A stretch of 38,960 nt of DNA. Source: Ignavibacteria bacterium (GTDB taxonomy: Bacteria; Bacteroidota; Ignavibacteria; Tepidaquicellales; Tepidaquicellaceae). Location of the stretch: contig JAFGII010000014.1 in assembly GCA_016929695.1 (NCBI GenBank), positions 1 through 38,960 of the forward strand, in the 5' to 3' direction. Shown in pieces: positions 1-35,464 of the stretch. The notes beneath the pieces were generated by a model that was given only the letters and a program-made list of their open reading frames with translations, did not search any database and was not told where the DNA came from. Made by a program: the position numbers and the translations under genes. Numbering within the stretch: the first letter of the stretch is position 1; every line of letters starts with the position of its first letter.

Positions 1-944
1 TAATTTTTAAATCCCATTAACGAGTTTATCCCGTTTATATTAATACCCGTGTATTTTTCTTCCTGCGGAGAGAAATTCAGGTCACGGTAATAAATTTTAT
101 TGTCATCTTTGTAATAATAAAGGCGGTTACCGAGAACAAGAAAGTCAAAATTATCTTCATAAAGATTTTCTGTTTCCGATGTTAAAACATTTTCATTTTT
201 ATAATTTAAAATATGAAGTTTTCTGTCCGTGAAAAAAATTATTTTGCCGTTGCAGGAAGAAATTTTTCCGGGGATAATATTATTTGATGAATATTTGTAT
301 GTGTAAATTATTTTTTTATCAACCGGGTTGAGCAGAATAATTTTCCCCTGCTTATTATCAGGATTGTATTCATTTAAGACGATTGAAATTGAATTATCTC
401 CTGCCATACAGTTCAGATTATTCCAGATATAACAGCCGGGTTCGCTTTTGTAAATTGCGCGTATTATATTATCTTCGTCAATTGAATACACGGCGTTAAT
501 TGAATTTATATATGCCTTATCTTTATAAGAAAATCCCGTTTTTTCAAACCTCACATTACCCGCATTGTATCTGTAAACAAGTGATGCATCAGGTTTATTT
601 ACCGAATAAACATTTCCGTTCAGGGATGTTAAAATTAAATTATCATAAGTTTGAAATATATTATTGATAAATTCATCGTTAAGTTCAATTTGCTTCAAAG
701 TCCTGAAACACCGTTCATTCCCTGCAGGATAAGCCAGTTCGGATTTATTAAATCCCGACAACCGGTTATCCGATTTATATCCAGAATATTCGGGTTCATA
801 AGGCGAGGTTTCTTCTTCAGGTTTTATCTTAACGGAAACATCTTTCTCTTCCGTTATATTTACATTGAGAACATCATTTTTTTGCTTATTATTCCGGTTT
901 TCTTCTTCATCATCAAATGATATTATGATTTTATCGTCTGCCAT
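1..944 (-). CDS. Hypothetical protein, N-terminal 314 residues (gene runs off the window)
   Basis: The ATG lies two bases after the dnaX stop, and the frame stays open to base 1, so the 3' end is missing. The product starts MADDKIIISFDDEEENRN, a charged, low-complexity N-terminus of about 60 residues with no signal peptide. It then becomes a series of short beta-strand-like segments such as LILTSLNGNVYSV, INAVYSIDEDNIIRAIY and KLHILNYKNENVL. These resemble blades of a PQQ/WD-type beta-propeller, but I cannot assign a family. The tight spacing suggests co-transcription with lon and dnaX. I do not recognise a function. Confidence is high that it is a gene and low on fold. Confidence 0.7.
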   Translation of the reverse strand, partial: MADDKIIISFDDEEENRNNKQKNDVLNVNITEEKDVSVKIKPEEETSPYEPEYSGYKSDNRLSGFNKSELAYPAGNERCFRTLKQIELNDEFINNIFQTYDNLILTSLNGNVYSVNKPDASLVYRYNAGNVRFEKTGFSYKDKAYINSINAVYSIDEDNIIRAIYKSEPGCYIWNNLNCMAGDNSISIVLNEYNPDNKQGKIILLNPVDKKIIYTYKYSSNNIIPGKISSCNGKIIFFTDRKLHILNYKNENVLTSETENLYEDNFDFLVLGNRLYYYKDDNKIYYRDLNFSPQEEKYTGININGINSLMGFKN

Positions 945-946
945 GG

Positions 947-2329
947 TTATTGATTATTGTTTATGTCAACCTCTTCGGTGTCAAACATATTTTTTAATTT
1001 ATTTTCCATATTACGGAACATATCTTCCGGAGAGGTATGTCCGGATTTCGGAATATCTGTTGAAACATTTAATCTGATATTAATTTCATCATCATTAATG
1101 GGAGGAGATTTATATTCCGACCGGTAAGATGTTTCCTTATATTTTGCCGTATTTTTTATATTTTCCGCAAAAGATATGTCAGAAGTTTTTTTTTTGAATT
1201 CCTCCAGACCGGTAATTAATTTTTCAAGGTCAATCACTTCTTTGTTTATGCGGCACAGTTCGACGAGAATTGTTTCCAGCAGAATTTTCTGATTGCCGGA
1301 ACTTCTGAATCTGTATTCGTCATCGAAAAGAATTTTCAATATTCTCAATATCTGCTCTTCCGAAAAATTTTCCGATTCTTTGAGATATTTTTTTCTGATT
1401 ACGTCGGATTCATCGAGGAGAGAGAGATTTTTTGTTGTTTTTATTATGAGCAAATCCCGAAAATGCTCGCTTATTCCGTTGAAGAATGTCTGAAGGTCAA
1501 ATCCAAGGTCAATCAGTTCATCGAAATATTTCAGGATTGAAGAAGCGTCGGAATTTTTTATATATTCAGAAATTTTGAAATAAACTTCTTTACCCGGCAG
1601 ATTGAGAAATTCTTTTAATTCGCCGACAGTAATTTTACTTCCGCAAAATGAAACTGCAAGGTCGAAAACTCCGAGCGCATCCCGCAGTGCACCGTCTCCG
1701 AGTTTCGCTATCAGGAAAAGAGATTCGTCGTCAATTTTTATTTTTTCATTTTCAGCAATATTTCTGAGTCTGTCAGTGATTTCATCAATTTTAAACCTGT
1801 GAAGATTGAACCGCTGGCAGCGGCTCACGATTGTCTGCGGAATTTTCTCCGGATTAGTTGTGGCGAGAATAAATATAAGGTAAGGGGGCGGCTCCTCGAG
1901 TATTTTAAGCATAGCGTTAAATGCCTGCTGAGTCAGCATGTGAACTTCGTCAACGATGAAAAATTTGTATTTTGCTTTTACGGGATAATATTTGGCTGCA
2001 TCCTGAATTGCTCTCACGTCGTCAATACCCCGGTTGGAAGCGGCGTCGAGTTCAAATACATCAGGGTGAATTCCTTTCGTAATTTCAACGCAGTTTTCGC
2101 ATTCATTGCAGGGCTCGCCGTCTTTCCGGTTCGGACAATTAAGTGCCTTGGCAAATATTCTTGCTATTGTTGTTTTACCTGTTCCTCTCGGACCGCTCAC
2201 GAGATATGAATGCCCCATCTTTTTTAGTTTTATTGCATTCTTTAATGTCTGCGTTACAAATTCCTGCGATATTACTTCGTCGAACCGCTGAGGTCTGTAT
2301 TTCAATGCTGATACTTTATAATCGCTCAT
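947..2329 (-). CDS. dnaX: DNA polymerase III subunit gamma/tau
   Basis: This is the clamp-loader ATPase of the replisome. It loads the beta clamp and, as tau, bridges to polymerase and helicase. The AAA+ module shows a Walker A, GPRGTGKTT, at residues 46-54 and a four-cysteine zinc site at C65, C74, C77 and C80. The Walker B/DEVH lies near 127-130, and sensor 1 is in ILATTNPEKIP. At 460 residues the protein is shorter than E. coli tau (643) and has only a short, charged C-terminal tail after the collar region. The ATG overlaps the lon stop as ATGA, implying translational coupling. An A10 run at codons 379-382 is a probable programmed slippage site, listed separately. The family call is certain. 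Confidence 0.97.
   Translation of the reverse strand: MSDYKVSALKYRPQRFDEVISQEFVTQTLKNAIKLKKMGHSYLVSGPRGTGKTTIARIFAKALNCPNRKDGEPCNECENCVEITKGIHPDVFELDAASNRGIDDVRAIQDAAKYYPVKAKYKFFIVDEVHMLTQQAFNAMLKILEEPPPYLIFILATTNPEKIPQTIVSRCQRFNLHRFKIDEITDRLRNIAENEKIKIDDESLFLIAKLGDGALRDALGVFDLAVSFCGSKITVGELKEFLNLPGKEVYFKISEYIKNSDASSILKYFDELIDLGFDLQTFFNGISEHFRDLLIIKTTKNLSLLDESDVIRKKYLKESENFSEEQILRILKILFDDEYRFRSSGNQKILLETILVELCRINKEVIDLEKLITGLEEFKKKTSDISFAENIKNTAKYKETSYRSEYKSPPINDDEINIRLNVSTDIPKSGHTSPEDMFRNMENKLKNMFDTEEVDINNNQ
1186..1195 (-). promoter_or_regulatory. A10 slippery run inside dnaX (putative gamma-producing frameshift site)
   Basis: On the coding strand a run of ten A residues covers codons 379-381 and the first base of codon 382. 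Reading with one extra A gives Asn-Phe and then TGA, a 383-residue product. Reading with one A lost gives a nine-codon tail and then TAA, a 390-residue product. Both alternative frames therefore stop soon after the AAA+ and collar domains, which matches the size logic of gamma against tau. Homopolymer slippage in dnaX is established for Thermus (A9), and ribosomal -1 shifting is established for E. coli. Use of this particular site is inference. Confidence 0.6.
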
Positions 2330-4887: not shown

Positions 4888-4968
4888 ATCTTATTGTTTG
4901 ATTATTGTCTTCAGTGTACTAAAAAATTTGAATTTAAATTTACATTCAATTAACTCAATATTCAATGT

Positions 4969-5001
4969 ATTATAAGATAATCCTTTATTATCGTAAAGGA
5001 T
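4969..5001 (-). promoter_or_regulatory. Putative lon promoter with overlapping dyad operator
   Basis: Reading toward lon, TTTACG (4997-4992), a 17-base spacer and TATAAT (4974-4969) form a sigma70-like promoter about 80 bases before the ATG. A perfect 8-bp inverted repeat, ATCCTTTA-N6-TAAAGGAT (4980-5001), covers the -35 element and the upstream part of the spacer, where a repressor would act. It is not the CIRCE sequence. The remaining bases between lon and the divergent TPR gene (4888-5197) are AT-rich and hold nothing else I can support. Promoter use and operator function are inferred. Confidence 0.4.
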
Positions 5002-5197
5002 ATATAAGGTTAAGATTAATTTTATTTTAAGTACAGAATAACGCATTTTCACTGCTAAAACCGCTTTTTAAATAAAAAAGACTAAAGATTCCGGTGATTT
5101 ATAATAAATTTATGAACATTTATTAATTTCAGCAGAATTTTATTCCGTTATTAAGAAATGAATTGATTTATCCGATAAATAGGAATAATTTTAAATT

Positions 5198-7582
5198 ATG
5201 AAGTTAAAAATAATAACGGTATTACTGGTCATATCGGCGTTTTTTATTTCGGGCTGTACGCATATGTCGCACAGGACTTATACAAAAACGGAAGTTGCCG
5301 TTGATGAAGACCCCGAACCTGTCTATGAAATAACACTGGATGAAAACTATCAGAATTTTGTCGAATATATGTTTGCAGTAAACCGCTCAGAAAGTTTCGG
5401 TACGTATTTCAATAAATATTATATGGCTGAAGTTGATTTCGACGAGGGAATGAAAGAATACAGAGCGGGATATGTCGCAAATTACAATCCGAGTCTTGAT
5501 TCACTTGATAAAGTGCCACCTGTTGCAACTGCCGCAAAGGAAAAATTCAATCTGGTTATTGAACGGTGTTCAAAAATAATTCAATATAATAAAAATACAC
5601 GTTTCCTTGATGATGCCGTTCTTCTAATCGGGAAATCCTATTTCTTTATGCAGGATTATCTTCAGGCAGAAAGGAAGTTCAATGAATTTCTTTCAAAACT
5701 GACACGAAGCGAATTATACGATGAGGCAATATTATATCTCGGGAAGACCAAAATGAAACTACGCAATAAATCGGACGGTGAATTAATATTGAACAATCTT
5801 CTTGTAAAAACGGACGACAACGAAATTAAATCCGAAATCACGGAGGAACTTGCCATAAATTCATTATCAAACCGTGACATTAAAACAGCGGTAGAATATT
5901 TTGAGAAATCTGTTGATTTTACAAAAGACGACGAAAAAAAGGCAAACAAACAATACACACTTGCCAAGATATTTTTATTAAGTGATATTGAGAAATCAGT
6001 CAGTGAATATGACAAAGTCATAGATAACACATCCGATTTTGATTTAACCTTTTATGCCAAACTGAACAAGGGAGTTGCACTCATAAAATTAAAGAAATAT
6101 AAGGATGCCCGTAAATTGTTCCGTGATTTAAGCAAAGATTATAGGGATTACCCTGATTTAAAACAGCAGGCAGACCTGGAACACGCAAATACTTATTTTT
6201 ATCTTGGTGAATATGATGAAGCATTAACAATGTATTATGATTTAATAATCGAATTTGCGGGTACAAAATCAGCTTCAGAGGCATATTATTATATGGGAAA
6301 GTATTACGAGGAAATAAAAAACGATTATTTTAATGCACTGATAAATTACAAGAAATCGGCTCAGGGTCCGATTTCGGAATTAGTTTCAATCAGTATAAAA
6401 AAATACAATCATCTTGATAAATATTTTACACTTATTGCGGAAATACAGGATACGTTAAAAACGGATATCCCCGGCGAAAATCCTCAACTTGAAAAATATA
6501 AACAACTAAAACTTGAAGAAGAAGGTATAGAACAGGAAAAAGGCAAACAAGAACCGAAATTTGAACAGCAGCATGAAGGGAAAGGCTTCGGCTCAGGAGT
6601 CAGGGATACAACAGATGCCGATACCTTAAAAACGGAAATAAAGGATGAAATCGGTGACGGAGGAGATACTGAAATCATAAAAGAACAGGTAAAGGACACG
6701 GTAGTTACCGATACATCCGGAATTAATAATTATGAGGAAATAATAGATTTACAGCATATTGAAGATTCAATAAATGCGGCAAGACAGGATAAAATTTTCA
6801 ATGCCTATTTTAATATGGCTGAACTGTTCGCTTTTAGTATGGGTATTAATGATTCTGCAATTGTATATCTTGAATTTTTAATGACTGATGATACAAGTTC
6901 CTACAGAAAACCCCGTGCGATGTATATGCTTTCAACATTATACAGAAGTGAAAAGCAGGAAGAAAAAGCCAATAAACTTTTAAATGATTTGATTGAACAA
7001 TTTCCAAAAACGGAATTAGCAAATGAAGCAAGAAAAATTCTTGGTCTTGAATTAATTGAAATTGAAACCGACCCTGCCGAATATCTTTATAAAGAAGCAG
7101 TGGATTATATATACTCGGGAAATTATCAGACAGCAATCGGCAATTTGACGAACGTTTTTACAAATTATACTCAAAGCAAAGTTGCTCCGAAATCATTATT
7201 TACACTGGGATGGATTTATGAACATCATCTTGCAAATAAAGACAGTGCCTACTATTACTACAAATTTTTAAAGGACAGATATCCGTTTTCCCGGTATAGT
7301 ATTGCGGTAGATCCGAAACTTAACGTTCTGACGGACTTTTTTAATCCAAAAATTCAGGATACGACAGGTGTTCTGCCTGATTCCCTTAAAGAAGGAGAGG
7401 ATATAATAGGTGAACTTCCTCAGGAAAAAGAGAAAGAGTTATTTGATATATCGGAAGATTCGTTAAAATTAGACCCTGAATTGCTTAAACAAATTATGCA
7501 GGATACTTTATTAACGGTGCCTTTGCCTGAAATACAGGAAGAACAGCCGGGCGAACAGGAAGAAGAAGCAGGGGAGAGATGA
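5198..7582 (+). CDS. Tetratricopeptide-repeat lipoprotein (possibly SprE/PorW-like)
   Basis: The 794-residue protein starts with a lipoprotein signal, MKLKIITVLLVISAFFISGC, with the lipidated Cys at position 20. Many TPR-like helical pairs follow, for example near 150-190 (DDAVLLIGKSYFFMQDYLQAERKF), 305-390 and 560-690. A Lys/Glu/Asp-rich linker lies around 430-510, and the C-terminus is acidic. It is probably anchored in the periplasmic leaflet of the outer membrane and acts as a protein-interaction scaffold. The window encodes T9SS cargo, and the layout (lipobox, a 'FNKYYMAEVDFDEGM' segment, then TPRs) recalls the T9SS lipoprotein SprE/PorW. That match is from memory of the family and is unproven. 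It is monocistronic and converges on htpX. Confidence 0.85.
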   Translation: MKLKIITVLLVISAFFISGCTHMSHRTYTKTEVAVDEDPEPVYEITLDENYQNFVEYMFAVNRSESFGTYFNKYYMAEVDFDEGMKEYRAGYVANYNPSLDSLDKVPPVATAAKEKFNLVIERCSKIIQYNKNTRFLDDAVLLIGKSYFFMQDYLQAERKFNEFLSKLTRSELYDEAILYLGKTKMKLRNKSDGELILNNLLVKTDDNEIKSEITEELAINSLSNRDIKTAVEYFEKSVDFTKDDEKKANKQYTLAKIFLLSDIEKSVSEYDKVIDNTSDFDLTFYAKLNKGVALIKLKKYKDARKLFRDLSKDYRDYPDLKQQADLEHANTYFYLGEYDEALTMYYDLIIEFAGTKSASEAYYYMGKYYEEIKNDYFNALINYKKSAQGPISELVSISIKKYNHLDKYFTLIAEIQDTLKTDIPGENPQLEKYKQLKLEEEGIEQEKGKQEPKFEQQHEGKGFGSGVRDTTDADTLKTEIKDEIGDGGDTEIIKEQVKDTVVTDTSGINNYEEIIDLQHIEDSINAARQDKIFNAYFNMAELFAFSMGINDSAIVYLEFLMTDDTSSYRKPRAMYMLSTLYRSEKQEEKANKLLNDLIEQFPKTELANEARKILGLELIEIETDPAEYLYKEAVDYIYSGNYQTAIGNLTNVFTNYTQSKVAPKSLFTLGWIYEHHLANKDSAYYYYKFLKDRYPFSRYSIAVDPKLNVLTDFFNPKIQDTTGVLPDSLKEGEDIIGELPQEKEKELFDISEDSLKLDPELLKQIMQDTLLTVPLPEIQEEQPGEQEEEAGER

Positions 7583-7591
7583 TTGGTCGTT

Positions 7592-7615
7592 GGTAATTGG
7601 GTAATTGGGTGATTG
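7592..7615 (+). repeat. Three tandem 8-bp repeats (GGTAATTG)
   Basis: Directly after the TPR-gene stop, GGTAATTG occurs twice in a row, followed by GGTGATTG. An offset, imperfect copy (GGTCGTTG) precedes them. This is a short tandem repeat of low complexity in the 152-base gap between the convergent genes. It has no clear hairpin or function. Confidence 0.6.
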
Positions 7616-7734
7616 ATAGAATTTTTATAGTTTGTTATATATCGAATTTATTTCTTCCGGGGCTGTCTTTAATGATTATTCTCTGATTTATATTTTCTTT
7701 TTTACAGTTATCTTATATAAAACAGTTTTATGAC

Positions 7735-8616
7735 TTAATGAATAATTGTCATTTCTTTTAATCTCTTTATTCTGTCTTCGATAGGGGGGTGTGTTCTGAA
7801 TAAGGAGAATCCCTTTTTCCAGTCAATTTTTGCCATGGTGAAAGAATCTTTTTTATCAAGCTGACCGGTATATCCGCCGATTGTTGCAAGGGCAGAAGCC
7901 ATTGCATCGGGCGATGTAGTTCTTGCGGAGCCTTCATCTGCCCGATATTCGCGGCGTCTTGAAAAAGCCGCAAGTACAATATTTGCGAGAAGCATTAAAA
8001 CAATCTGCACAATAAAAACGACTGCGGGATATGCCAAGGCACCCAATCCGCCGCGGCTGCTCTGGTTTCGTGTTGCCGAACCGAGAAAAATAACTATGAA
8101 TCTTGATATAAATATAACAAATGCGTTTGCAATACCCGTCAGTAATGTAAGAGTTACCATATCGCCATTTTTTATGTGAGCCATTTCATGTCCGGCAACC
8201 GCTTCAATCCGTCTTTCATCCATCATATTCAGAAGACCTGTGGAGAATGCCACCATAGATGATTTTTTTGTTGCACCCGTAGCAAATGCATTCGGCTCGG
8301 GCGAGTTGTAAATTCCAACTTCAGGGACAGGTAAATTATTTTTTTCGGCAAGCCTTTTAATCATGCTGTATATTCTTCCCTCGGTTCCTGATGATGTTGA
8401 AGGTTCAATAATTTTTATTGAATAAGCCTTTTTTGCCATCCATTTGCTTATAAGCAAGGAAATAAATGAGCCGCCCATTCCCCAAAAGACTGACATTATC
8501 AGCAAACCTGTAACACCTGCACTGTCAATACCGAGTAAACTGAGGATAAACCCAATTACTACAATTACAAGAAAATTTACAACTAAGAATAATCCGATTC
8601 TTTTGATATACTCCAT
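7735..8616 (-). CDS. htpX: Membrane zinc metalloprotease HtpX (M48 family)
   Basis: HtpX is an inner-membrane protease that removes damaged membrane proteins, acting beside FtsH. The 293-residue protein has two N-terminal membrane segments (about 8-29 and 36-58) and two more near 155-178 and 193-217. The zinc motif HEMAH has H143, E144 and H147, and the third ligand is E223 in RREYRADEGS. These positions nearly coincide with E. coli HtpX (H139, H143, E222). The AVAGHEMAHIKNGD context is diagnostic. It stands alone on the minus strand, converging on the TPR gene. No heat-shock operator is visible upstream. Confidence 0.95.
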   Translation of the reverse strand: MEYIKRIGLFLVVNFLVIVVIGFILSLLGIDSAGVTGLLIMSVFWGMGGSFISLLISKWMAKKAYSIKIIEPSTSSGTEGRIYSMIKRLAEKNNLPVPEVGIYNSPEPNAFATGATKKSSMVAFSTGLLNMMDERRIEAVAGHEMAHIKNGDMVTLTLLTGIANAFVIFISRFIVIFLGSATRNQSSRGGLGALAYPAVVFIVQIVLMLLANIVLAAFSRRREYRADEGSARTTSPDAMASALATIGGYTGQLDKKDSFTMAKIDWKKGFSLFRTHPPIEDRIKRLKEMTIIH

Positions 8617-8767
8617 AATTTGAATTTAGTTTATATTAAAAATAAGATAATAAAATGAGAAAAGTTATTCAAAAGAGATGAAAGGAATTAAATAAAATAT
8701 GTCTGGAGATTAAAAAAAGGTATCGGGACTGCTCTGCTGAATCAGTGGTATAATATTTTTCCAAGGT

Positions 8768-19822: not shown

Positions 19823-20416
19823 TTGGGCAAAGTAAAAAGTATAATTCAAAAATTCATTCCGCCTGAAAAGTGGAGAGTGCCTGTAATTATTGCACTTGGA
19901 GTATTAACGGGATTAATAGTCTTTACGTTTTACATCGGAAATGCGGCATCTTATTTATCGGACAAACCCGAGACCTGCATTAACTGCCACGTAATGTACA
20001 ATCATTACACATCCTGGAAGTACAGTTCCCATTCGAGAGTAGCAACCTGTAATGACTGTCACGTGCCTCAGGATAATTTCGTCAGGAAATATATGTTCAA
20101 AGCCACGGACGGATTGAGACATTCAACAATATTCACATTAAGACTTGAACCGCAGGCTATAAGAATTAAACAGGCGGGAGCAAATGCTGTTCAGGAAAAC
20201 TGCAAAAGATGCCACGAGAATGTTTTTACACTTGTTGATCTTGCTCACAGCAAATATTTAAATGACGATGATATATATGAAAGACCCTGCTGGGATTGTC
20301 ATATGGAGACGCCTCACGGCTCAGTCAACAGTTTATCGACATACCCGAATTCGAGGATATTCGCACCTGACGACCTGGTTCCGGAGTGGATAAAACAACA
20401 AATAAATAAAAAATAA
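19823..20416 (+). CDS. nrfH: Cytochrome c nitrite reductase small subunit NrfH (tetraheme)
   Basis: NrfH is a NapC/NirT-type membrane quinol dehydrogenase that passes electrons from menaquinol to NrfA. The 197-residue protein has an N-terminal membrane anchor (about 20-42) and four CXXCH heme sites at 52-56, 76-80, 127-131 and 156-160. The first begins TCINCHVMYNHY, as in this family. The start is taken as TTG because a TAA stop lies immediately upstream in frame and no ATG precedes the membrane segment. No Shine-Dalgarno sequence is visible. It is 15 bases upstream of nrfA. Confidence 0.95.
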   Translation: MGKVKSIIQKFIPPEKWRVPVIIALGVLTGLIVFTFYIGNAASYLSDKPETCINCHVMYNHYTSWKYSSHSRVATCNDCHVPQDNFVRKYMFKATDGLRHSTIFTLRLEPQAIRIKQAGANAVQENCKRCHENVFTLVDLAHSKYLNDDDIYERPCWDCHMETPHGSVNSLSTYPNSRIFAPDDLVPEWIKQQINKK

Positions 20417-20431
20417 TTTAAAAATTTTATT

Positions 20432-21880
20432 ATGAAGAAAATATCAGAAGCCATTAAAGAGAAGCCCTGGATAGGCTGGGTTTTATATCTTGCAACAATT
20501 ATAATAGTGTTCCTTATCGGCCTTTTGGGCAGTTCGATAATCGAAAGGCGCAGTGAAGCACTGGTTTTGCAGACTGTTAAACCTATTGCGGACTGGGAGC
20601 CGAAAAACGAAATTTGGGGAGAAAACTATCCGAGGGAATATGAATCTTATATTAAAACCGCGGATACGACATTTGCAAGTAAGCACGGAGGTTCTGCCAC
20701 AATAGACGCGCTTGCAAAGAATCCTGACCTTGTTATACTGTGGGCGGGATATTCTTTCTCAAGAGATTACAATCAGTCTCGCGGTCATTATAATGCGGTT
20801 AAAGATTCCAGATTGACATTGAGAACAGAATTACCCCAGCCGGGTACCTGCTGGAGCTGCAAAAGTACTGATGTACCGAGAGTTATGAATGAAATTGGAA
20901 TTGCAGAATTTTACAAAACTCCCTGGAAAGAATTAGGAAAAGAAATTATTAACAATATCGGATGTCAGGACTGCCACGACCCGAAAACAATGAATCTCAG
21001 GATTACCAGACCGGCTTTGGTAGAAGCGTTTCAGAGACAGGGGAAAGATATTTCAAAAGTTTCTCATCAGGATATGAGGTCATTAGTATGTGCGCAGTGC
21101 CACGTTGAATATTATTTTAAAGGCGAAGGAAAATATCTTACATTCCCGTGGGATAAAGGATTTACGGTTGAAGATATGGAAAATTATTATGATTCGGTGG
21201 ATTTTGTTGACTGGGTTCATTCATTAAGCAAAGCACCTATGTTGAAAGCACAGCACCCGGATTATGAAGTTTACAAATTTGGAATACACGCGGAGAGAAA
21301 CATATCCTGTGCCGAATGCCACATGCCATATAAAACTGAAGGCGGTGTTAAATTTACCGACCATCACATACAAAGTCCCTTGAATAATATTTCAGGTTCG
21401 TGTCTGGTATGCCATCGTGAACCTGAAGCAATTCTTATGAAAAATGTTTATGACAGGCAGGATAAAATACTTGACTTAAGCAAGAAAGCGACTTCATTAA
21501 TTGTAAAGGCGCATATAGAGGCAAAAACTGCCTGGGACAACGGAGCGACAGAAGAACTGATGAAACCGATTTTAAAACTTATCCGGCAGGCACAATGGAG
21601 ATGGGACTATGTTGCGGCATCGCACGGCGGGGCATTCCACGCACCGCTTGAAGCAGCAAGGATTCTCGGCATTTCAATAGAGAAGGCACAGGATGCAAGA
21701 ATTTTGCTCACGGCATTACTGCAGAAATTAAATGTTACCGTACCTGTTTCTATTCCGGACATTTCCACGAAAGAAAAAGCTCAGCAGTATATAGGTCTCG
21801 ATATGAAAAAACTATACGAAGAAAAAATGGAATTTGTAAAGAATGTAATTTCAACCTGGGATAATCCGTCTGTTTATTGA
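20432..21880 (+). CDS. nrfA: Cytochrome c nitrite reductase catalytic subunit NrfA (pentaheme)
   Basis: NrfA reduces nitrite to ammonium with six electrons in the periplasm, ending respiratory nitrite ammonification (DNRA). The 482-residue protein has an N-terminal signal or anchor helix (about 13-36). The diagnostic CXXCK catalytic heme site is C140-WSCK-144. Four CXXCH sites follow at 178-182, 220-224, 293-297 and 324-328. Conserved surroundings include SRDYNQSRGHY (active-site Arg region), CAQCHVEYYFKG and HPDYEVYKFGIHAERN. The CXXCK form is the classical NrfA and needs the dedicated heme lyase, which is not in this window. It forms an operon with nrfH. Confidence 0.98.
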   Translation: MKKISEAIKEKPWIGWVLYLATIIIVFLIGLLGSSIIERRSEALVLQTVKPIADWEPKNEIWGENYPREYESYIKTADTTFASKHGGSATIDALAKNPDLVILWAGYSFSRDYNQSRGHYNAVKDSRLTLRTELPQPGTCWSCKSTDVPRVMNEIGIAEFYKTPWKELGKEIINNIGCQDCHDPKTMNLRITRPALVEAFQRQGKDISKVSHQDMRSLVCAQCHVEYYFKGEGKYLTFPWDKGFTVEDMENYYDSVDFVDWVHSLSKAPMLKAQHPDYEVYKFGIHAERNISCAECHMPYKTEGGVKFTDHHIQSPLNNISGSCLVCHREPEAILMKNVYDRQDKILDLSKKATSLIVKAHIEAKTAWDNGATEELMKPILKLIRQAQWRWDYVAASHGGAFHAPLEAARILGISIEKAQDARILLTALLQKLNVTVPVSIPDISTKEKAQQYIGLDMKKLYEEKMEFVKNVISTWDNPSVY

Positions 21881-21922: not shown

Positions 21923-22324
21923 TTAAATATTACTTCTTATATAATATTTTATAAACTCGGAAGGAGTAACGATAAATTTTTCGTCAGGAAAATGTTTTTT
22001 GTTCATAGTTAATAGATAATCCGCTTTTCCGCAAATAGAAACTTCGTAAAATTTTTTGTTTTCCTCATCTTTAAATTCAGCAGATACGGGTTTTGTTGAT
22101 ATGCACTCCCCCATATTTTCAATGAATTCAATAAAAGAACTGATTAAGTCTTTAGAAAAATTAAACCTGTTCTGTTTTAATAAACTTTTATATTCGTCCA
22201 GTATTTTTGAGTCATATAACAGAAGGAAATCCGAATTCAGTAACATTTTTAAAATTTCAGCGGAAACGCAGTCGGGATTTGTAAATCCGTGTACAAAAAC
22301 ATTACAATCTATTACTATTCTCAT
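21923..22324 (-). CDS. PIN-domain ribonuclease toxin (COG1569-like)
   Basis: The 133-residue protein has the PIN fold landmarks. It begins MRIVIDCNVFVHGF with acidic D6, followed by LYDSKILDEY with E44. The DEENKKFYEVSICGKADYLLTMNKKHF block includes D102 and corresponds to the family's 'D-DNKFLE-A--ADYLVT' core. The metal-binding acidic residues needed for RNase activity are therefore present. Its ATG overlaps the stop of the upstream antitoxin gene by 4 bp, the usual arrangement of a type II toxin-antitoxin pair. The RNA target is unknown. Confidence 0.88.
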   Translation of the reverse strand: MRIVIDCNVFVHGFTNPDCVSAEILKMLLNSDFLLLYDSKILDEYKSLLKQNRFNFSKDLISSFIEFIENMGECISTKPVSAEFKDEENKKFYEVSICGKADYLLTMNKKHFPDEKFIVTPSEFIKYYIRSNI

Positions 22325-22605
22325 TTCATTACTTTTCTTGCTGTGTCAATAATACCGTTTATTTCTTTTTTAGACAGCTTATGATTCCTGTTTTTTACGG
22401 AGGTTTTCCACATTTTATCCAGACTGACAATTGCTTTGGCGCGCCTTATTTCATTAAGTGTTTCTTCAATATTTAAATCCGAAAGAGGTGTAAGCAAAAC
22501 AACAGGTGTCCCCTTATTCGTGATAATTAATTCATTAACATTTTCAAGTTCATCCCAGACTTTTTTGGGATGATTTTTATAATCATCTTCTGTTATATAC
22601 TTCAT
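22321..22605 (-). CDS. Phd/YefM-type antitoxin
   Basis: The 94-residue protein has a short N-terminal region, WDELENVNELIITNKGTPVVLLTP, typical of Phd/YefM DNA-binding antitoxins. A Lys-rich helical C-terminus follows and would mask the toxin. A purine-rich AAGGA lies about eight bases before the ATG, so this gene, unlike most neighbours, has a Shine-Dalgarno-like site. It is the first gene of the pair with the PIN toxin and probably autoregulates it. Confidence 0.82.
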   Translation of the reverse strand: MKYITEDDYKNHPKKVWDELENVNELIITNKGTPVVLLTPLSDLNIEETLNEIRRAKAIVSLDKMWKTSVKNRNHKLSKKEINGIIDTARKVMK

Positions 22606-23842: not shown

Positions 23843-25013
23843 TTGATTGAAATAATTTATGCTGATAATTATTATTGCAGTTTTTAATACGGTAATAATT
23901 TTTGTTTCTGATTTTTACTATTTCGATGCTGCCGAGTTTCTTTATATAAGTGTTTAATTTTTTTGGAGACCAGTCAAGGTTCAATTTTGAAATGATTTCC
24001 GTAGCTGTTAACGATGTATTTTGTAAAATTCTTATTATATCGTCTTCGGGAGATTTACCTTCTCTGACGGTTTGAAAAACAATATCATTGTTTTTTATTG
24101 AGTTTATTCCCGGTCCGGATATGCCTGTCGCGTGATAAGATTCCTTTCCTTTCATATCTACGGGGACAGCACCTATTTCTATTAATTTATTATTAGCGTT
24201 TTTTTCGTCTGCATTCGGCATTCTCACATAAATTTTTCTTCCTTTCCGCAGTCCGTCCTGTACTCCCGACCATGTTCCGCCTTTTTCATCGGATTCCGCA
24301 ACGTAAATTTCCTGAGCAAGACCGTAAATAACCGGATTTCTTGCCATTGCAAGTTCCACTTTCCACGGTGCTTTCGGATGAAATATGCTTAAAACAAGTA
24401 CATCGCCGTTTATTATCTGAGTATAATATTGCCTGAATCCCGATGAAAATGTCAGAATACCCTGCGGTAAAACTATTATACTGCGTCCGATGTATTTTAT
24501 TGCGGAATCAAGTGCCTGCTTGTCAACCCCTTTAGCAAAGCCGCTTACTACTACTTTAAATTCTTTGCTCGCAAGTTTTGCAATGTTGTCAGTGAATTCA
24601 AGCGAAATATCAGAAGCGTTACGTGAACCGACTATTGCAACAGATTTTTCCCGAAAGATTTGTTTATCGCCTTTGATGTATATTAATGCGGGAGAATAAG
24701 ATACTTTCAGATTTTGTTTTAAAGTCTTCGGATAGTCTTCGGATGTTATGGGAATAAGTTCATAACCCTCATTGAATAGATTTTCCGCAAGAAATGAATT
24801 GTTCGGAATTTCGGATTTTGAATTATTTAAATCCGATACCTCTTTATCATTTAAACCGTATAAGTTTCTCCATTCGGATTCGGAAAGTTTAAAAAAATCT
24901 TCGAGCGGTAATTTATTTTCATGATGAAATTTAATTATTAATTCATTAATTCTTGATGTCCGCCACTTTGGCAGATGTGCAAAAGAAATCCAGTATGGCG
25001 CATCCTTAATCAT
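23832..25013 (-). CDS. DprA/Smf-like SLOG-fold protein, divergent
   Basis: The 393-residue protein has a helical N-terminal region of about 90 residues, then the DprA hallmark 'YPKTLKQ...SPALIYIKGD' (94-116). The Rossmann-like core has SVAIVGSRNAS (GSR 129-131) and VVVSGFAKGVDKQALD (157-168). The usual 'G(S/G)LITA--A---GR-V-A-PG' block is replaced by EKGGTWSGVQDGLRKGRKIYV (about 243-263). A winged helix ends the protein (about 322-378). DprA normally loads RecA onto incoming ssDNA, and related SLOG proteins bind nucleotides. Its ATG overlaps the recQ-like stop by 4 bp. The odd core and partner genes argue for a specialised paralogue and not the competence dprA. Confidence 0.85.
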   Translation of the reverse strand: MIKDAPYWISFAHLPKWRTSRINELIIKFHHENKLPLEDFFKLSESEWRNLYGLNDKEVSDLNNSKSEIPNNSFLAENLFNEGYELIPITSEDYPKTLKQNLKVSYSPALIYIKGDKQIFREKSVAIVGSRNASDISLEFTDNIAKLASKEFKVVVSGFAKGVDKQALDSAIKYIGRSIIVLPQGILTFSSGFRQYYTQIINGDVLVLSIFHPKAPWKVELAMARNPVIYGLAQEIYVAESDEKGGTWSGVQDGLRKGRKIYVRMPNADEKNANNKLIEIGAVPVDMKGKESYHATGISGPGINSIKNNDIVFQTVREGKSPEDDIIRILQNTSLTATEIISKLNLDWSPKKLNTYIKKLGSIEIVKIRNKNYYRIKNCNNNYQHKLFQSNEK

Positions 25014-27028
25014 ACAATATCTCCTCCTACCGTTTTTGCAATTACCAGAGGTGCAATTTTTTGTGCCCCCATATCCGATAAATATTTTCCTATTTCTTTC
25101 ATTGTTGCTCCGCTGTCGAATATATCGTCTATTAATAAAATTTTCTTTCTAAAAATACCGTTTGGATTAATTAAAATAAATGCATCTTTTACATTATCTG
25201 CTTTCAGATAAGTATTTTCAAACATTTTTTGTTCTTTTGTTTCAACCTGTTTTACAAGGTCATCGGAGACAGGAATATTCAGTATTTTGGAAATTTTAAC
25301 GGCAAAATTTTTGACGAGGTTTCCGGATTTTGTCGGAGGAACATATAATATCAAATCAAATTTTTCATTACCGAATTTATAACGAAATGCATTCACAGAA
25401 AGATTAAGCAGAAAGTCCGGGAAATCCCCGCCGTTTTTATATTTACATTTGTGAATAACCTTGCCTACGTTTGATACTCCGTAGTAGGAACCTGCAATGC
25501 CGTTTACAATATTGGATTTCTTGCTTTCAACTTTCAATTCGGGGAAATCACTTTCCCGAAACTTATTTAATTTCTGCTGCCACTCTTCGGATTGAACAAT
25601 TGTTAACTTCTTCAATCCCGTATTATCACAGTTTTTAAATTCTCTGCCTGTGTTGTCTCCGAGGAATTCGCACAGAAATTTCATACGGGAATTTTCTGTT
25701 TCCGTATAATCAATCATACATTCAAGTTCTTTTATCTTCAGATTTCTGAGTTCTTCGAATGTTTTAGAATTTAATTCAGGAGCATTTCTTATATATTCAT
25801 ATTTCTTACTTTTACCGACAGTTACCTCTCTAATAATTTTTTGCTCCATCAGGTCAGCTTTTATTACTCTTACCTGATTGGTTTTCAGGTTCACTTTTTT
25901 CATTATTTCGCGTTCACCGAGCAATTCTTTTTTAATTTCTTCAATTACTTTGAAATATTTTGTAATTGAAGGTCTCCCGCCTTCTATGAATGATTCGGGA
26001 AGGTCTCTGTCTTCGGGATTATAGAAAAGAATTATATCTGAGGGTAATCCGTCCCTTCCTGCTCTTCCTATTTCCTGATAATAATGTATCGGAGACTGCG
26101 GTATCTGAGTATGTATTATGAATCTGATGTCGGGTTTATCTATTCCCATTCCGAGTGCATTTGTAGATACCACGCATTTCCATTTATTATTCATTAAACC
26201 GTTTTCAATTTCAACTCTTGATTGAGCATCGAGACCGGCATTATAATTAACTGAAGATATTTTTGAAAATTCGAACCATCTTGAATAAATTTCTGTATTA
26301 ACTCTCGTTCCCGTATAGATTATTCCGGAGCCGTTAATGGAATTTAAATTCTGTGCGAGCCAAATCATTTTTTCATCTTCGGAATTTACTTTTATTACGT
26401 ATAATCGGAAGTTATCTCTCATAAGATTTCCTCTGGAAACATTTACATTGCCTCCGATTTGCTTTGCAATGTCCTCTTCAACCCGTTTAGTAGCGGTTGC
26501 TGTAGTTGCAAGCACAGGGAATCCTTCAGGCAGAAGTTTAACAAGATTAATAATTCTTCTGAATGCAGGACGAAAATCATGCCCCCATACCGAAACACAG
26601 TGAGCTTCGTCAATTACAACCATTGATAAATTCATTTGCCTTGTTGATTCGAGCCATTCTTTATTTTCCTGCCTTTCGGGAGCAATGTAAAGAATTTTTA
26701 TTTTTCCTTTAATTGCTTCATCCAGCACCAACGCATTTTCTTCCGGAGTTCGTTCACTGTTAACGCATTTTGCCGCTATTCCAAGCTCATTAAGTTTTTT
26801 GATTTGGTCACGCATTAAGGACAGCAAGGGAGAAAACACAACTGTCATACCTTTAAACAAAACAGCAGGGAACTGATAGCATAATGATTTCCCGTATCCG
26901 GTTTTTTCTATAAGTAGAACTCTTTCACCGTTCAGAATTTTTTCAACTGTGAACCATTGATTCTCATGGAATCCTTTAATTTTGAATTTATTTGTTAATA
27001 AAGATTCTGCCTGAATTCGTGTTAACAT
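25010..27028 (-). CDS. RecQ-family DNA helicase fused to a phosphoribosyltransferase domain
   Basis: The 672-residue protein is a superfamily 2 helicase. Walker A is EKTGYGKS (41-48), the DEAH box VVIDEAHCVSVWGHDFRP starts near 137, TTATAT lies near 175-180, and motif VI QEIGRAGRDG ends at 327. The RecQ zinc subdomain is degenerate: only C437, C453 and C467 remain and the CGNCDNC pattern reads FKNCDNT. The C-terminal 170 residues form a type I phosphoribosyltransferase with the PRPP loop ILLIDDIFDSGATM (630-643) and an upstream VPPTKSG segment. It heads an operon with the DprA-like and repeat genes. A six-codon leader frame (27049-27029) ends in TAG directly before the ATG. Confidence 0.92.
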   Translation of the reverse strand: MLTRIQAESLLTNKFKIKGFHENQWFTVEKILNGERVLLIEKTGYGKSLCYQFPAVLFKGMTVVFSPLLSLMRDQIKKLNELGIAAKCVNSERTPEENALVLDEAIKGKIKILYIAPERQENKEWLESTRQMNLSMVVIDEAHCVSVWGHDFRPAFRRIINLVKLLPEGFPVLATTATATKRVEEDIAKQIGGNVNVSRGNLMRDNFRLYVIKVNSEDEKMIWLAQNLNSINGSGIIYTGTRVNTEIYSRWFEFSKISSVNYNAGLDAQSRVEIENGLMNNKWKCVVSTNALGMGIDKPDIRFIIHTQIPQSPIHYYQEIGRAGRDGLPSDIILFYNPEDRDLPESFIEGGRPSITKYFKVIEEIKKELLGEREIMKKVNLKTNQVRVIKADLMEQKIIREVTVGKSKKYEYIRNAPELNSKTFEELRNLKIKELECMIDYTETENSRMKFLCEFLGDNTGREFKNCDNTGLKKLTIVQSEEWQQKLNKFRESDFPELKVESKKSNIVNGIAGSYYGVSNVGKVIHKCKYKNGGDFPDFLLNLSVNAFRYKFGNEKFDLILYVPPTKSGNLVKNFAVKISKILNIPVSDDLVKQVETKEQKMFENTYLKADNVKDAFILINPNGIFRKKILLIDDIFDSGATMKEIGKYLSDMGAQKIAPLVIAKTVGGDIV

Positions 27029-33486: not shown

Positions 33487-33571
33487 TTCGGTTGGATGAT
33501 AAAAAGCAAAAGTAATTTCTAAAATTTTTGCGGTTTAGTTTTTGCAAATATTTTCAATAAAAGAGGTTATA

Positions 33572-35464
33572 ATGGATTTATTAATTTCTGTTTTTGTTTT
33601 TCTGAAGTTATTTCTAATAGATGGATTTACACAGGAGATACCCTTGCCGGGTGAAACTTCATCCTTATTTTCGGGTTCAGGAAACTGTGCTTCCTGTCAT
33701 ACGGGAAACGGAATAATCTTATCTGAAAATGGTGTTGATATATCCCCCGTAACACACTGGCGTTCTTCAATAATGGGAAACGCCTCAAAAGACCCGTTCT
33801 GGAGAGCCGTTGTTGAAGAAGAAGTTCATCAGCTTCCGCAGTATCAGTTTTTAATTGAAAGCACCTGTACAAAATGTCACGCCGCAATGGGATGGCGGCA
33901 GGCAATTCAAAACGGAGATTCCGGTTACACTATGGTACAAATGAAACAAAATGCGTTGGCAAAGGACGGTGTGAGTTGTACTGTCTGTCATCAGATAAAA
34001 AACACAAATTTCGGAATGCAGTCAAGTTACAGCGGTGGATACATCATAACGACAGAAAGGCTTATTTACGGACCATATCAAAATCCGCTTGCAGGTCCGA
34101 TGATAAACTCCGTTAATTATACTCCGGTATATTCTGCCTCGGCAAATCAGTCGGAATTATGTGCTACCTGTCATACATTATTCACACCGACAGTAAATTA
34201 CAGCGGACAAATTACAGGTTACTTTCCTGAACAAACACCGTATATAGAATGGAAAAACAGCATATACAAAACAAACGGAGTCCAATGTCAGACTTGCCAT
34301 ATGCCTGTTACGAATACTCCGATTGATATTTCCACGAGTCCGCCATTTGATACAACAAAAAGAACACCCTACTGGAAACATCTTTTTGCGGGGGGAAACA
34401 GTTTTGTCGGGAAAATTCTCAGAAATAATGTTGACAGTCTTCAGTTATCTGCATCGCCCCAGCACTTTGATACAACATTATTTTATATTAGCAAGTCATT
34501 GAAAGAAAGTTCTTTGAATTTATTCTCAAATCCGACATACAGTTCAGGTATATTAAATATAGCGGTTGCCGTTGAAAATAATACCGGCCATAAAATTCCT
34601 ACTGGAATACCGTACAGAAGAATGTGGATTCATCTAAAAGTATCAGACCAGTCAAATAATACTGTGTTTGAATCAGGGAACTGGAATTCAACAGGGGAAA
34701 TAATCGGACTCGATTCAACATATGAACAGCATTATGCAGAAATTACAAACCAGAATCAGGTTCAGATATATGAAGGTTCTTTAAAAGATGTTAACGGAAA
34801 TTTTACATATAAACTTCTTCGGGCAGCATCTTATATAAAAGACAATCGTCTTCCTCCAAAGGGATTTACTAATCAGCATCCAAGTTACGATACCATCGCA
34901 ATTACAGGCGGAGCCGCGTCAGATACAAATTTCAACAGGCAGGGCACAATTCAGGGAACCGGAAAAGATATAATTTATTATAAAATCCCCGTTCAGGGAA
35001 ATTCTCAATATACCATAAAAACAGAAATATGCTATCAATCCGTACCTCCGAGATTAATCTCTTATCTGCAGGGGATTTTTACTCCTGATATTCAAAAATT
35101 CATTGTGCTTTATAATGCTTCGGATAAAAATCCCGTTATAATGAAAACTATGACTTATACTTATACGACAAATATTACACCCGTAAATACAAATATTCCT
35201 GAAAAATATTTTCTATATCAAAACTTCCCGAATCCGTTTAACTCCTCATCCAATATTAAGTTCGATATTTTGAAAACGGGAAATGTTGTATTGGAAATAT
35301 TTGATATTACCGGAAGGAATATATTAATACCCGTCAATGAAATATTACAACCTGGGACATACAGCATCAGATTTGACGGAAATGATTTAACGACCGGAAT
35401 ATATTTTTATAAATTACGAAGCGGAGATTTTTCCGAAACGAGAAAACTTGTTATTATAAAATAA
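33572..35464 (+). CDS. Secreted pentaheme cytochrome c with T9SS sorting domain
   Basis: I start at the ATG preceded by AAAGAGG, which begins the signal peptide MDLLISVFVFLKLFLIDGF. A TTG 30 bases upstream is less likely. The 630-residue protein has five CXXCH heme sites at about 39-43, 99-103, 136-140, 197-201 and 239-243, with additional histidines that can serve as distal ligands. A beta-rich region of about 280 residues follows, and a complete type A T9SS C-terminal domain (YQNFPNPFNSSSNIKFDILK...TGIYFYKL...KLVIIK). Heme is attached in the periplasm and the T9SS would then place the cytochrome outside the cell. The role is inferred as extracellular electron transfer or an oxidoreductase. 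The substrate is unknown. Confidence 0.9.
   Translation: MDLLISVFVFLKLFLIDGFTQEIPLPGETSSLFSGSGNCASCHTGNGIILSENGVDISPVTHWRSSIMGNASKDPFWRAVVEEEVHQLPQYQFLIESTCTKCHAAMGWRQAIQNGDSGYTMVQMKQNALAKDGVSCTVCHQIKNTNFGMQSSYSGGYIITTERLIYGPYQNPLAGPMINSVNYTPVYSASANQSELCATCHTLFTPTVNYSGQITGYFPEQTPYIEWKNSIYKTNGVQCQTCHMPVTNTPIDISTSPPFDTTKRTPYWKHLFAGGNSFVGKILRNNVDSLQLSASPQHFDTTLFYISKSLKESSLNLFSNPTYSSGILNIAVAVENNTGHKIPTGIPYRRMWIHLKVSDQSNNTVFESGNWNSTGEIIGLDSTYEQHYAEITNQNQVQIYEGSLKDVNGNFTYKLLRAASYIKDNRLPPKGFTNQHPSYDTIAITGGAASDTNFNRQGTIQGTGKDIIYYKIPVQGNSQYTIKTEICYQSVPPRLISYLQGIFTPDIQKFIVLYNASDKNPVIMKTMTYTYTTNITPVNTNIPEKYFLYQNFPNPFNSSSNIKFDILKTGNVVLEIFDITGRNILIPVNEILQPGTYSIRFDGNDLTTGIYFYKLRSGDFSETRKLVIIK

What the first reader, a model, noticed from the sequence alone, without database searches (positions are those of the whole stretch)
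33572..35464. Pentaheme cytochrome c exported by the type IX system
Five CXXCH sites and a complete T9SS sorting domain in one chain predict a surface or released multiheme cytochrome. This would be a route for extracellular electron transfer different from the porin-cytochrome systems of Shewanella and Geobacter. The genome segment also encodes NrfHA, so anaerobic respiration is likely.
Basis: partly seen in the sequence, partly recalled or inferred. Interest (0 to 1): 0.55.

Follow-up and report, generated by a model that had tools for sequence, protein, structure and literature searches.

The report
Surface-export tagged five-heme cytochrome
A bacterium of the Ignavibacteria group carries a gene for a five-heme, electron-carrying protein joined to the tag that sends proteins to the cell surface; the parts and the export machinery are really there, but nothing yet shows that it moves electrons to the outside world.

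Summary
The ORF at 33572-35464 encodes 630 aa with five CXXCH sites (0.004 expected) and a type A T9SS sorting domain above the Pfam and NCBIfam cut-offs. The predicted fold splits cleanly: residues 29-531 match the whole pentaheme cytochrome c552 of Thermochromatium tepidum (5ze8, Z 23.4), and residues 546-629 match a solved T9SS sorting domain. So it is a member of the pentaheme 'PHC' kind (T. tepidum c552, Geobacter ExtKL) turned into T9SS cargo. The genome holds SprA, five C25 (PorU-type) places, cytochrome c assembly genes and at least 150 sorting-domain stretches. Homologues occur in 26 of 395 genomes drawn from the phylum; most carry the tag, others lack it, with at least five changes on a 56-row tree. 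NrfHA is real but 12 kb away, and no gene partner is conserved. Best reading: an exported, surface-tethered or released five-heme electron relay or terminal reductase; export likely, role in extracellular electron transfer plausible but untested. New variant of a known kind.

The parts
33562..33566 (+). likely ribosome-binding site AGAGG, 5 nt before the ATG
   Evidence: sequence read; inference
33572..35464 (+). pentaheme cytochrome with C-terminal T9SS sorting domain (630 aa)
33572..33634 (+). atypical Sec signal peptide, residues 1-21; probable cut before or near Q21
   Evidence: sequence; helix 2-17 in the model; no signal-peptide predictor was run
33686..34300 (+). five CXXCH heme c sites, residues 39-243
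   Evidence: all five motifs invariant in 26 of 26 aligned rows
34583..34618 (+). invariant motif GHKxPxGxPxR (residues 338-349 TGHKIPTGIPYR); H340 is a candidate heme ligand
   Evidence: aligned to GHSIPDGUP of MccSep and PHAMPTGAPFR of 5ze8; ligand role inferred
34502..35164 (+). Ig-like domain (residues about 311-531) of the c552 fold
   Evidence: VIA match to 5ze8 over residues 29-531; boundary approximate
35225..35455 (+). T9SS type A C-terminal sorting domain
   Evidence: fold match to mirolase CTD 8qb1 over residues 546-629
19823..21880 (+). NrfH and NrfA (ammonia-forming nitrite reductase); same window, no demonstrated link

Best explanation
It is a c552/ExtKL-type pentaheme cytochrome that has become T9SS cargo. 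Inferred chain: Sec export; heme attachment by the genome's cytochrome c assembly proteins in the periplasm; folding; recognition of the sorting domain by the T9SS; passage through SprA; cleavage by a PorU-type protease, with tethering to the surface or release. There it would act as an outer-surface electron relay or terminal reductase, fed either by a separate outer-membrane conduit such as the barrel-like/14-heme module on contig C87, or by a soluble shuttle. Shown: gene, domains, predicted fold, and presence of export and maturation genes. Inferred: every step of processing, location, redox partner and acceptor.
For: Five CXXCH far above chance and invariant in 26 of 26 rows. Fold of residues 29-531 matches 5ze8 with Z 23.4, rmsd 3.0, 348 of 385 residues (Foldseek E 5e-15); sequence profile E 1e-11. 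Sorting domain by family and fold (8qb1, Z 9.4, rmsd 2.3, 77 of 88). SprA 941.7 bits with its neighbours, five C25 places, at least 150 sorting-domain stretches, two cytochrome c assembly places. In L039 (Aquificota) and L040 (Chloroflexota) the homologue lacks the tag and has a lipobox-like N-terminus (read by eye), so outward anchoring may be a recurrent theme. A conserved 3-heme/barrel-like/14-heme module exists in the genome.
Against: No redox partner beside the gene and no conserved neighbourhood among the Ignavibacteria. The gene is patchy: 26 of 395 genomes, with no heme-domain match listed for the two same-genus genomes, while the conduit module is common (22 of 27), so the two are not tightly linked. 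Heme-motif richness does not separate positive from negative genomes. Marine Flavobacteriales carry the family beside a TonB receptor and a sugar-dehydrogenase-like gene, which does not suggest mineral respiration. Signal peptide atypical. The same-family genome G027 has an untagged homologue.
Confidence: 0.5

Rival explanations
1. An exported or periplasmic pentaheme enzyme that acts on a small soluble substrate (nitrogen, sulfur or metalloid compound) rather than passing electrons to solids.
For: Weak sequence kinship to NrfA and c552 around one CXXCH; MccSep, aligned at the GHxxPxG motif, looks like an enzyme because it has a selenocysteine at that site; only three non-CXXCH histidines are conserved in at least 25 of 26 rows (H270, H340, H387), and a further candidate column (H in 21 of 26) is S190 here, so one heme may lack a second ligand.
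Against: No CXXCK site as in NrfA; the selenocysteine position is isoleucine 346 here; no catalytic residue set identified; ligands were not measured on coordinates.
Confidence: 0.27
2. The protein stays in the periplasm or is non-functional in this strain because the signal peptide is poor.
For: No positive charge before the hydrophobic core and T instead of A at the probable -1 site; patchy distribution.
Against: Open frame and all heme and domain motifs intact; sorting domain scores well; Q at +1 fits the Bacteroidetes Q-rule, with a 77% Q-value reported for Ignavibacterium album (passages of PMC5837995).
Confidence: 0.1
3. A surface heme or iron store, or an adhesin-like structural protein.
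For: T9SS cargo is often adhesive or nutrient-capturing (recalled); marine homologues lie beside a TonB receptor gene in four loci.
Against: Covalent CXXCH hemes are not easily recovered (inference); strict conservation of heme motifs and the c552 fold point to redox use.
Confidence: 0.07
4. A T9SS-exported subunit of a cytochrome filament related to archaeal ECN nanowires.
For: A paper proposes that c552/ExtKL-type pentaheme cytochromes resemble AvECN in heme order (passages of PMC11976967).
Against: AvECN and PcECN did not appear among 29 and 31 listed PDB sequence matches up to E = 10; five hemes instead of four; the T. tepidum homologue is described as a soluble protein (recalled).
Confidence: 0.04

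Closest known systems
Pentaheme cytochrome c552 of Thermochromatium tepidum (PDB 5ze8)
   Same: Whole fold of the heme plus Ig-like domain (Z 23.4, 348 of 385 residues); five hemes; conserved His-x-x-P motif
   Different: No sorting domain; purple sulfur bacterium, not T9SS cargo
ExtKL / PHC family of Geobacter and cable bacteria (NF040886; PMC11976967)
   Same: Family-level sequence match (32.8 bits; 20 of 22 and 14 of 16 homologues match); five hemes
   Different: Far below the ExtKL equivalog cut-off of 250 bits; no selenocysteine; not in an ext cluster; carries a T9SS tag
MccSep multiheme cytochrome selenoprotein (PDB 9wt8)
   Same: GHxxPxG motif region aligned
   Different: Selenocysteine position is isoleucine here; only weak match elsewhere
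T9SS type A cargo (TIGR04183, PF18962)
   Same: Sorting domain by family and fold; T9SS genes in the genome
   Different: Cargo is a multiheme cytochrome; no description of such cargo surfaced in my paper searches
OmcA/MtrC and porin-cytochrome outer surface cytochromes
   Same: Proposed role at the outer surface
   Different: Five hemes, different fold, not a lipoprotein, no porin gene beside it

Membership tests
T9SS type A cargo | C-terminal sorting domain above curated cut-off | tested here: met
   PF18962 40.7/27 bits, TIGR04183 42.3/23 bits
T9SS type A cargo | sorting-domain fold | tested here: met
   model 546-629 against 8qb1: Z 9.4, rmsd 2.3, 77 of 88
T9SS type A cargo | T9SS core in the same genome | tested here: met
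   SprA 941.7 bits; five C25 places; other T9SS parts not searched
T9SS type A cargo | Sec signal peptide | tested here: inconclusive
   hydrophobic N-terminus present but atypical; no predictor available
T9SS type A cargo | secretion and cleavage of the tag | not testable with these tools
   needs proteomics
Pentaheme c552 / PHC family | five CXXCH plus Ig-like domain in the 5ze8 fold | tested here: met
Pentaheme c552 / PHC family | covalent hemes occupied | not testable with these tools
   cytochrome c assembly genes present, no experiment
ExtKL equivalog (NF040886) | score above 250 bits | tested here: not met
   32.8 bits
NrfA (cytochrome c nitrite reductase) | CXXCK active-site heme | tested here: not met
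   all five sites are CXXCH; PF02335 23.8 bits against 24.1
OmcA/MtrC outer-membrane decaheme cytochromes | ten hemes, TIGR03507 above 209 bits | tested here: not met
   five hemes; 21 bits
Porin-cytochrome conduit | barrel and periplasmic multiheme genes beside the cytochrome | tested here: not met
   neighbours are a BNR/CTD protein, purC and purE
ECN nanowire cytochromes (AvECN, PcECN) | sequence or fold kinship | tested here: inconclusive
   not among the listed matches; heme-domain-only model too poor to search (pLDDT 57.8)

The most novel reading that the evidence does not exclude
Bacteria with a T9SS have, on several occasions, put a pentaheme c552-type cytochrome onto or off the export line by gaining or losing the sorting domain, creating surface-tethered or released (possibly polymerising) heme proteins that extend an outer-membrane conduit outward. 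That would be T9SS-built electron transfer equipment, a way to display respiratory cytochromes not based on lipoprotein export.
Probability: 0.3. Interest if true: 0.7.

Novelty: new variant of a known kind. Interest (0 to 1): 0.42.

Why it matters
How outer-surface cytochromes are exported is well described mainly for Proteobacteria and Desulfobacterota (recalled). Ignavibacteria are found on anodes and are suspected of extracellular electron transfer (passages of PMC7399161). A T9SS-tagged cytochrome with untagged close relatives, sometimes as a tandem pair in one genome (L035, G347), makes a direct test possible: does adding or removing the tag move the same redox protein across the outer membrane, and does that change what the cell can reduce?

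Tried and rejected
Richness test: heme-motif excess per Mb in 11 family-positive against 20 negative genomes of the same class or order, medians 60.0 and 55.2, p = 0.43; no association. The 15 positives outside the class were counted but not used.

Neighbourhood test: ORF clusters around 26 loci gave no shared neighbour among the Ignavibacteria; only the marine Flavobacteriales share a neighbourhood.

Synteny: purC/purE are present in G001, G002 and G010 without the cytochrome beside them; G005, G009 and G027 gave no usable purC match.

Structure: the heme domain folded alone is poor (pLDDT 57.8), so no fold search was made with it. A home-made beta-alternation score did not separate barrels from soluble proteins well (434-aa protein 0.50, TonB receptor 0.44, Lon 0.41), so 'barrel-like' for the C87 protein rests on reading its sequence and on its setting.

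Rows left out of the tree: second copies of the window gene (L074, L090) and of L004 (L097), fragment L118, two partial reads (L116 -2..1386 and L091 3178..4521), and every row under 100 bits or under 380 model columns. For counting tag changes, 5 of 56 rows were left out (L037 broken frame; L098, L004, L002_1459, L003 unclear tag): 34 tagged, 17 untagged, 5 changes; with 4 of those 5 put back as tagged, still 5. Which 4 of the 22 rows of A3 fail TIGR04183 was not shown; my choice of unclear rows is a judgement.

Papers: (T9SS with multiheme cytochrome) returned 0 papers and 1 paper (on methanotrophic archaea, with no occurrence of T9SS); some searches listed others, of which I read passages only. 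None of those passages describes a T9SS-exported multiheme cytochrome. Searches looked for MccSep, the T. tepidum c552 and ECN papers. The library lacks most subscription papers, and one search listed 30 of 1,544 hits. Baquero et al. 2023 on ECN nanowires is not held; the description of the T. tepidum c552 as a soluble protein is recalled.

Full report
The observation. The ORF at window 33572-35464 (+) reads 630 aa without interruption, with ATG at 33572 preceded by AGAGG. It has five CXXCH at residues 39, 99, 136, 197 and 239; composition predicts 0.004 such motifs, and none of 20000 shuffles had more than one. The C-terminus matches the T9SS type A sorting domain above both curated cut-offs (PF18962 40.7/27; TIGR04183 42.3/23). 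NrfH (19823-20416) and NrfA (20432-21880) pass their own cut-offs, and NrfA has the CWSCK active-site motif. They lie 12 kb upstream, separated by a PIN/Phd-type pair, DprA, a RecQ-type helicase and others.

What it is. Pfam gives Cytochrome_C7 above cut-off; NCBIfam gives a weak match to ExtKL (32.8 bits, cut-off 250). A profile of 26 aligned rows finds the T. tepidum pentaheme cytochrome c552 (5ze8) at E 1e-11, and weakly MccSep and NrfA-type proteins. The AlphaFold model (mean pLDDT 82.9) matches 5ze8 over residues 29-531: Foldseek E 5e-15, VIA Z 23.4, rmsd 3.0, 348 of 385 residues. Residues 546-629 match the solved sorting domain of mirolase (8qb1, Z 9.4, rmsd 2.3, 77 of 88 residues). So the chain is a complete c552-type cytochrome (heme domain plus Ig-like domain) with a complete T9SS tag. 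A 2025 paper groups ExtKL and GSU2801-type proteins as a pentaheme (PHC) family, with structural likeness to the T. tepidum c552, and proposes likeness to the AvECN nanowire (passages of PMC11976967).

Conserved residues. All five CXXCH and the motif GHKxPxGxPxR are kept across the 26 rows (GHK, both P after it and R invariant, the second G in at least 90%). Beyond the five CXXCH histidines, H270 and H340 are invariant and H387 is kept in 25 of 26; H436 in 23 of 26. A further column has His in 21 of 26 rows but serine (S190) in the window protein. The selenocysteine of MccSep falls on isoleucine 346 here. Whether these histidines bind heme is inferred; no coordinates were available to measure.

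Export and maturation. The genome (2.78 Mb, 99.55% complete) holds at least 150 sorting-domain stretches (150 of 197 candidates scored), SprA (941.7 bits with its neighbours), five peptidase C25 places and two cytochrome c assembly places on contig C87. [quoted passage not shown] The signal peptide is the weak point: MDLLISVFVFLKLFLIDGFTQ has no early positive charge, unlike the MKK-type starts of many homologues. Q at +1 would fit the Q-rule, whose value for Ignavibacterium album is given as 77% (passages of PMC5837995).

Distribution and the tag. The genome-contig scan gave 40 loci that encode a relative; some match only through the sorting domain. The best segments of the seven Ignavibacteria loci at its head are 47-55% identical. 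In 395 genomes of the phylum, 26 (own genome included) have a match at E <= 1e-30. In 59 relatives, strong heme-domain matches were listed for 5 genomes (G000, G027, G044, G046, G054); the other matches in the printed part of that list are sorting domains only, and the list was cut. On a 56-row tree (35 of 53 inner branches starred) the window protein lies in a 16-row set of Ignavibacteria-type sequences (99/93*). Of 51 rows with a clear tag state, 34 are tagged and 17 not, needing at least 5 changes; the tree cannot say gain or loss. Among 22 homologues, mostly with weaker tails, 18 match TIGR04183; among 16 classed as untagged, TIGR04183 is not among the 14 families listed. Two genomes (L035, G347) hold a tagged and an untagged copy in tandem on one strand; G044 has a similar pair. 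The same-family genome G027 has a homologue, split over two contig ends, whose C-terminal piece ends without a tag. Homologues from Aquificota (L039) and Chloroflexota (L040) lack the tag and start with lipobox-like sequences (read by eye; motif recalled).

Does it serve extracellular electron transfer? For: location by tag, a fold related to proteins proposed for such transfer, and a genome with an apparent conduit. On contig C87 (L082) lie a 3-heme cytochrome c554-like protein, a 434-aa protein that reads like a barrel, a 14-heme protein and a lipoprotein-like 5-heme protein. The 434-aa protein has homologues in 22 of 27 genomes tested, and all 10 loci fetched have a 3-4-heme and a 12-14-heme gene on its two sides. 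A published study reports Ignavibacteria rich in multiheme cytochromes and porin-cytochrome clusters in an anode study (passages of PMC7399161). Against: the cytochrome gene is not linked to that module by position or distribution; positives are not richer in heme motifs; neighbourhoods are not conserved; marine Flavobacteriales homologues sit by a TonB receptor and a GSDH-type gene.

Verdict. The finding is real and correctly read at the level of anatomy. It is best called a new variant: a known pentaheme cytochrome family fitted with a T9SS tag, recurrent in the phylum. I put surface or released location at about 0.8 and a role as external electron relay or terminal reductase at about 0.5 (judgements). 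I found no description of a T9SS-exported multiheme cytochrome in searches, but most subscription papers are outside that library.

Noticed in passing
L082 (G000:C87:38000-50000), 4437-8663 (-): Conserved module of 3-heme c554-like, 434-aa barrel-like, 14-heme and lipoprotein-like 5-heme proteins beside cytochrome c assembly genes; looks like a porin-cytochrome conduit common in the group.
   Followed up: partly
L035 4165-7769; G347:C1:3407712-3410924; L002 1-3366: Tandem tagged and untagged copies of the same pentaheme cytochrome in one genome.
   Followed up: partly
window 34139-34141 (residue 190): Serine where 21 of 26 aligned rows have histidine just before heme site 4; a possible lost heme ligand.
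   Followed up: partly
window 25010-27028 (-): RecQ-type helicase with a C-terminal ComF-like phosphoribosyltransferase domain, directly next to dprA.
   Followed up: no
L086 1323-2675 (-): Untagged 4-5-heme relative with the TGHKFPTG motif in the same genome (weak ExtKL match).
   Followed up: no
L040 5767-8064 (+): Chloroflexota homologue with three extra CXXCH in a C-terminal extension in place of the sorting domain.
   Followed up: no
window 21923-22605 (-): PIN-domain / Phd-type toxin-antitoxin-like pair just after nrfA.
   Followed up: no
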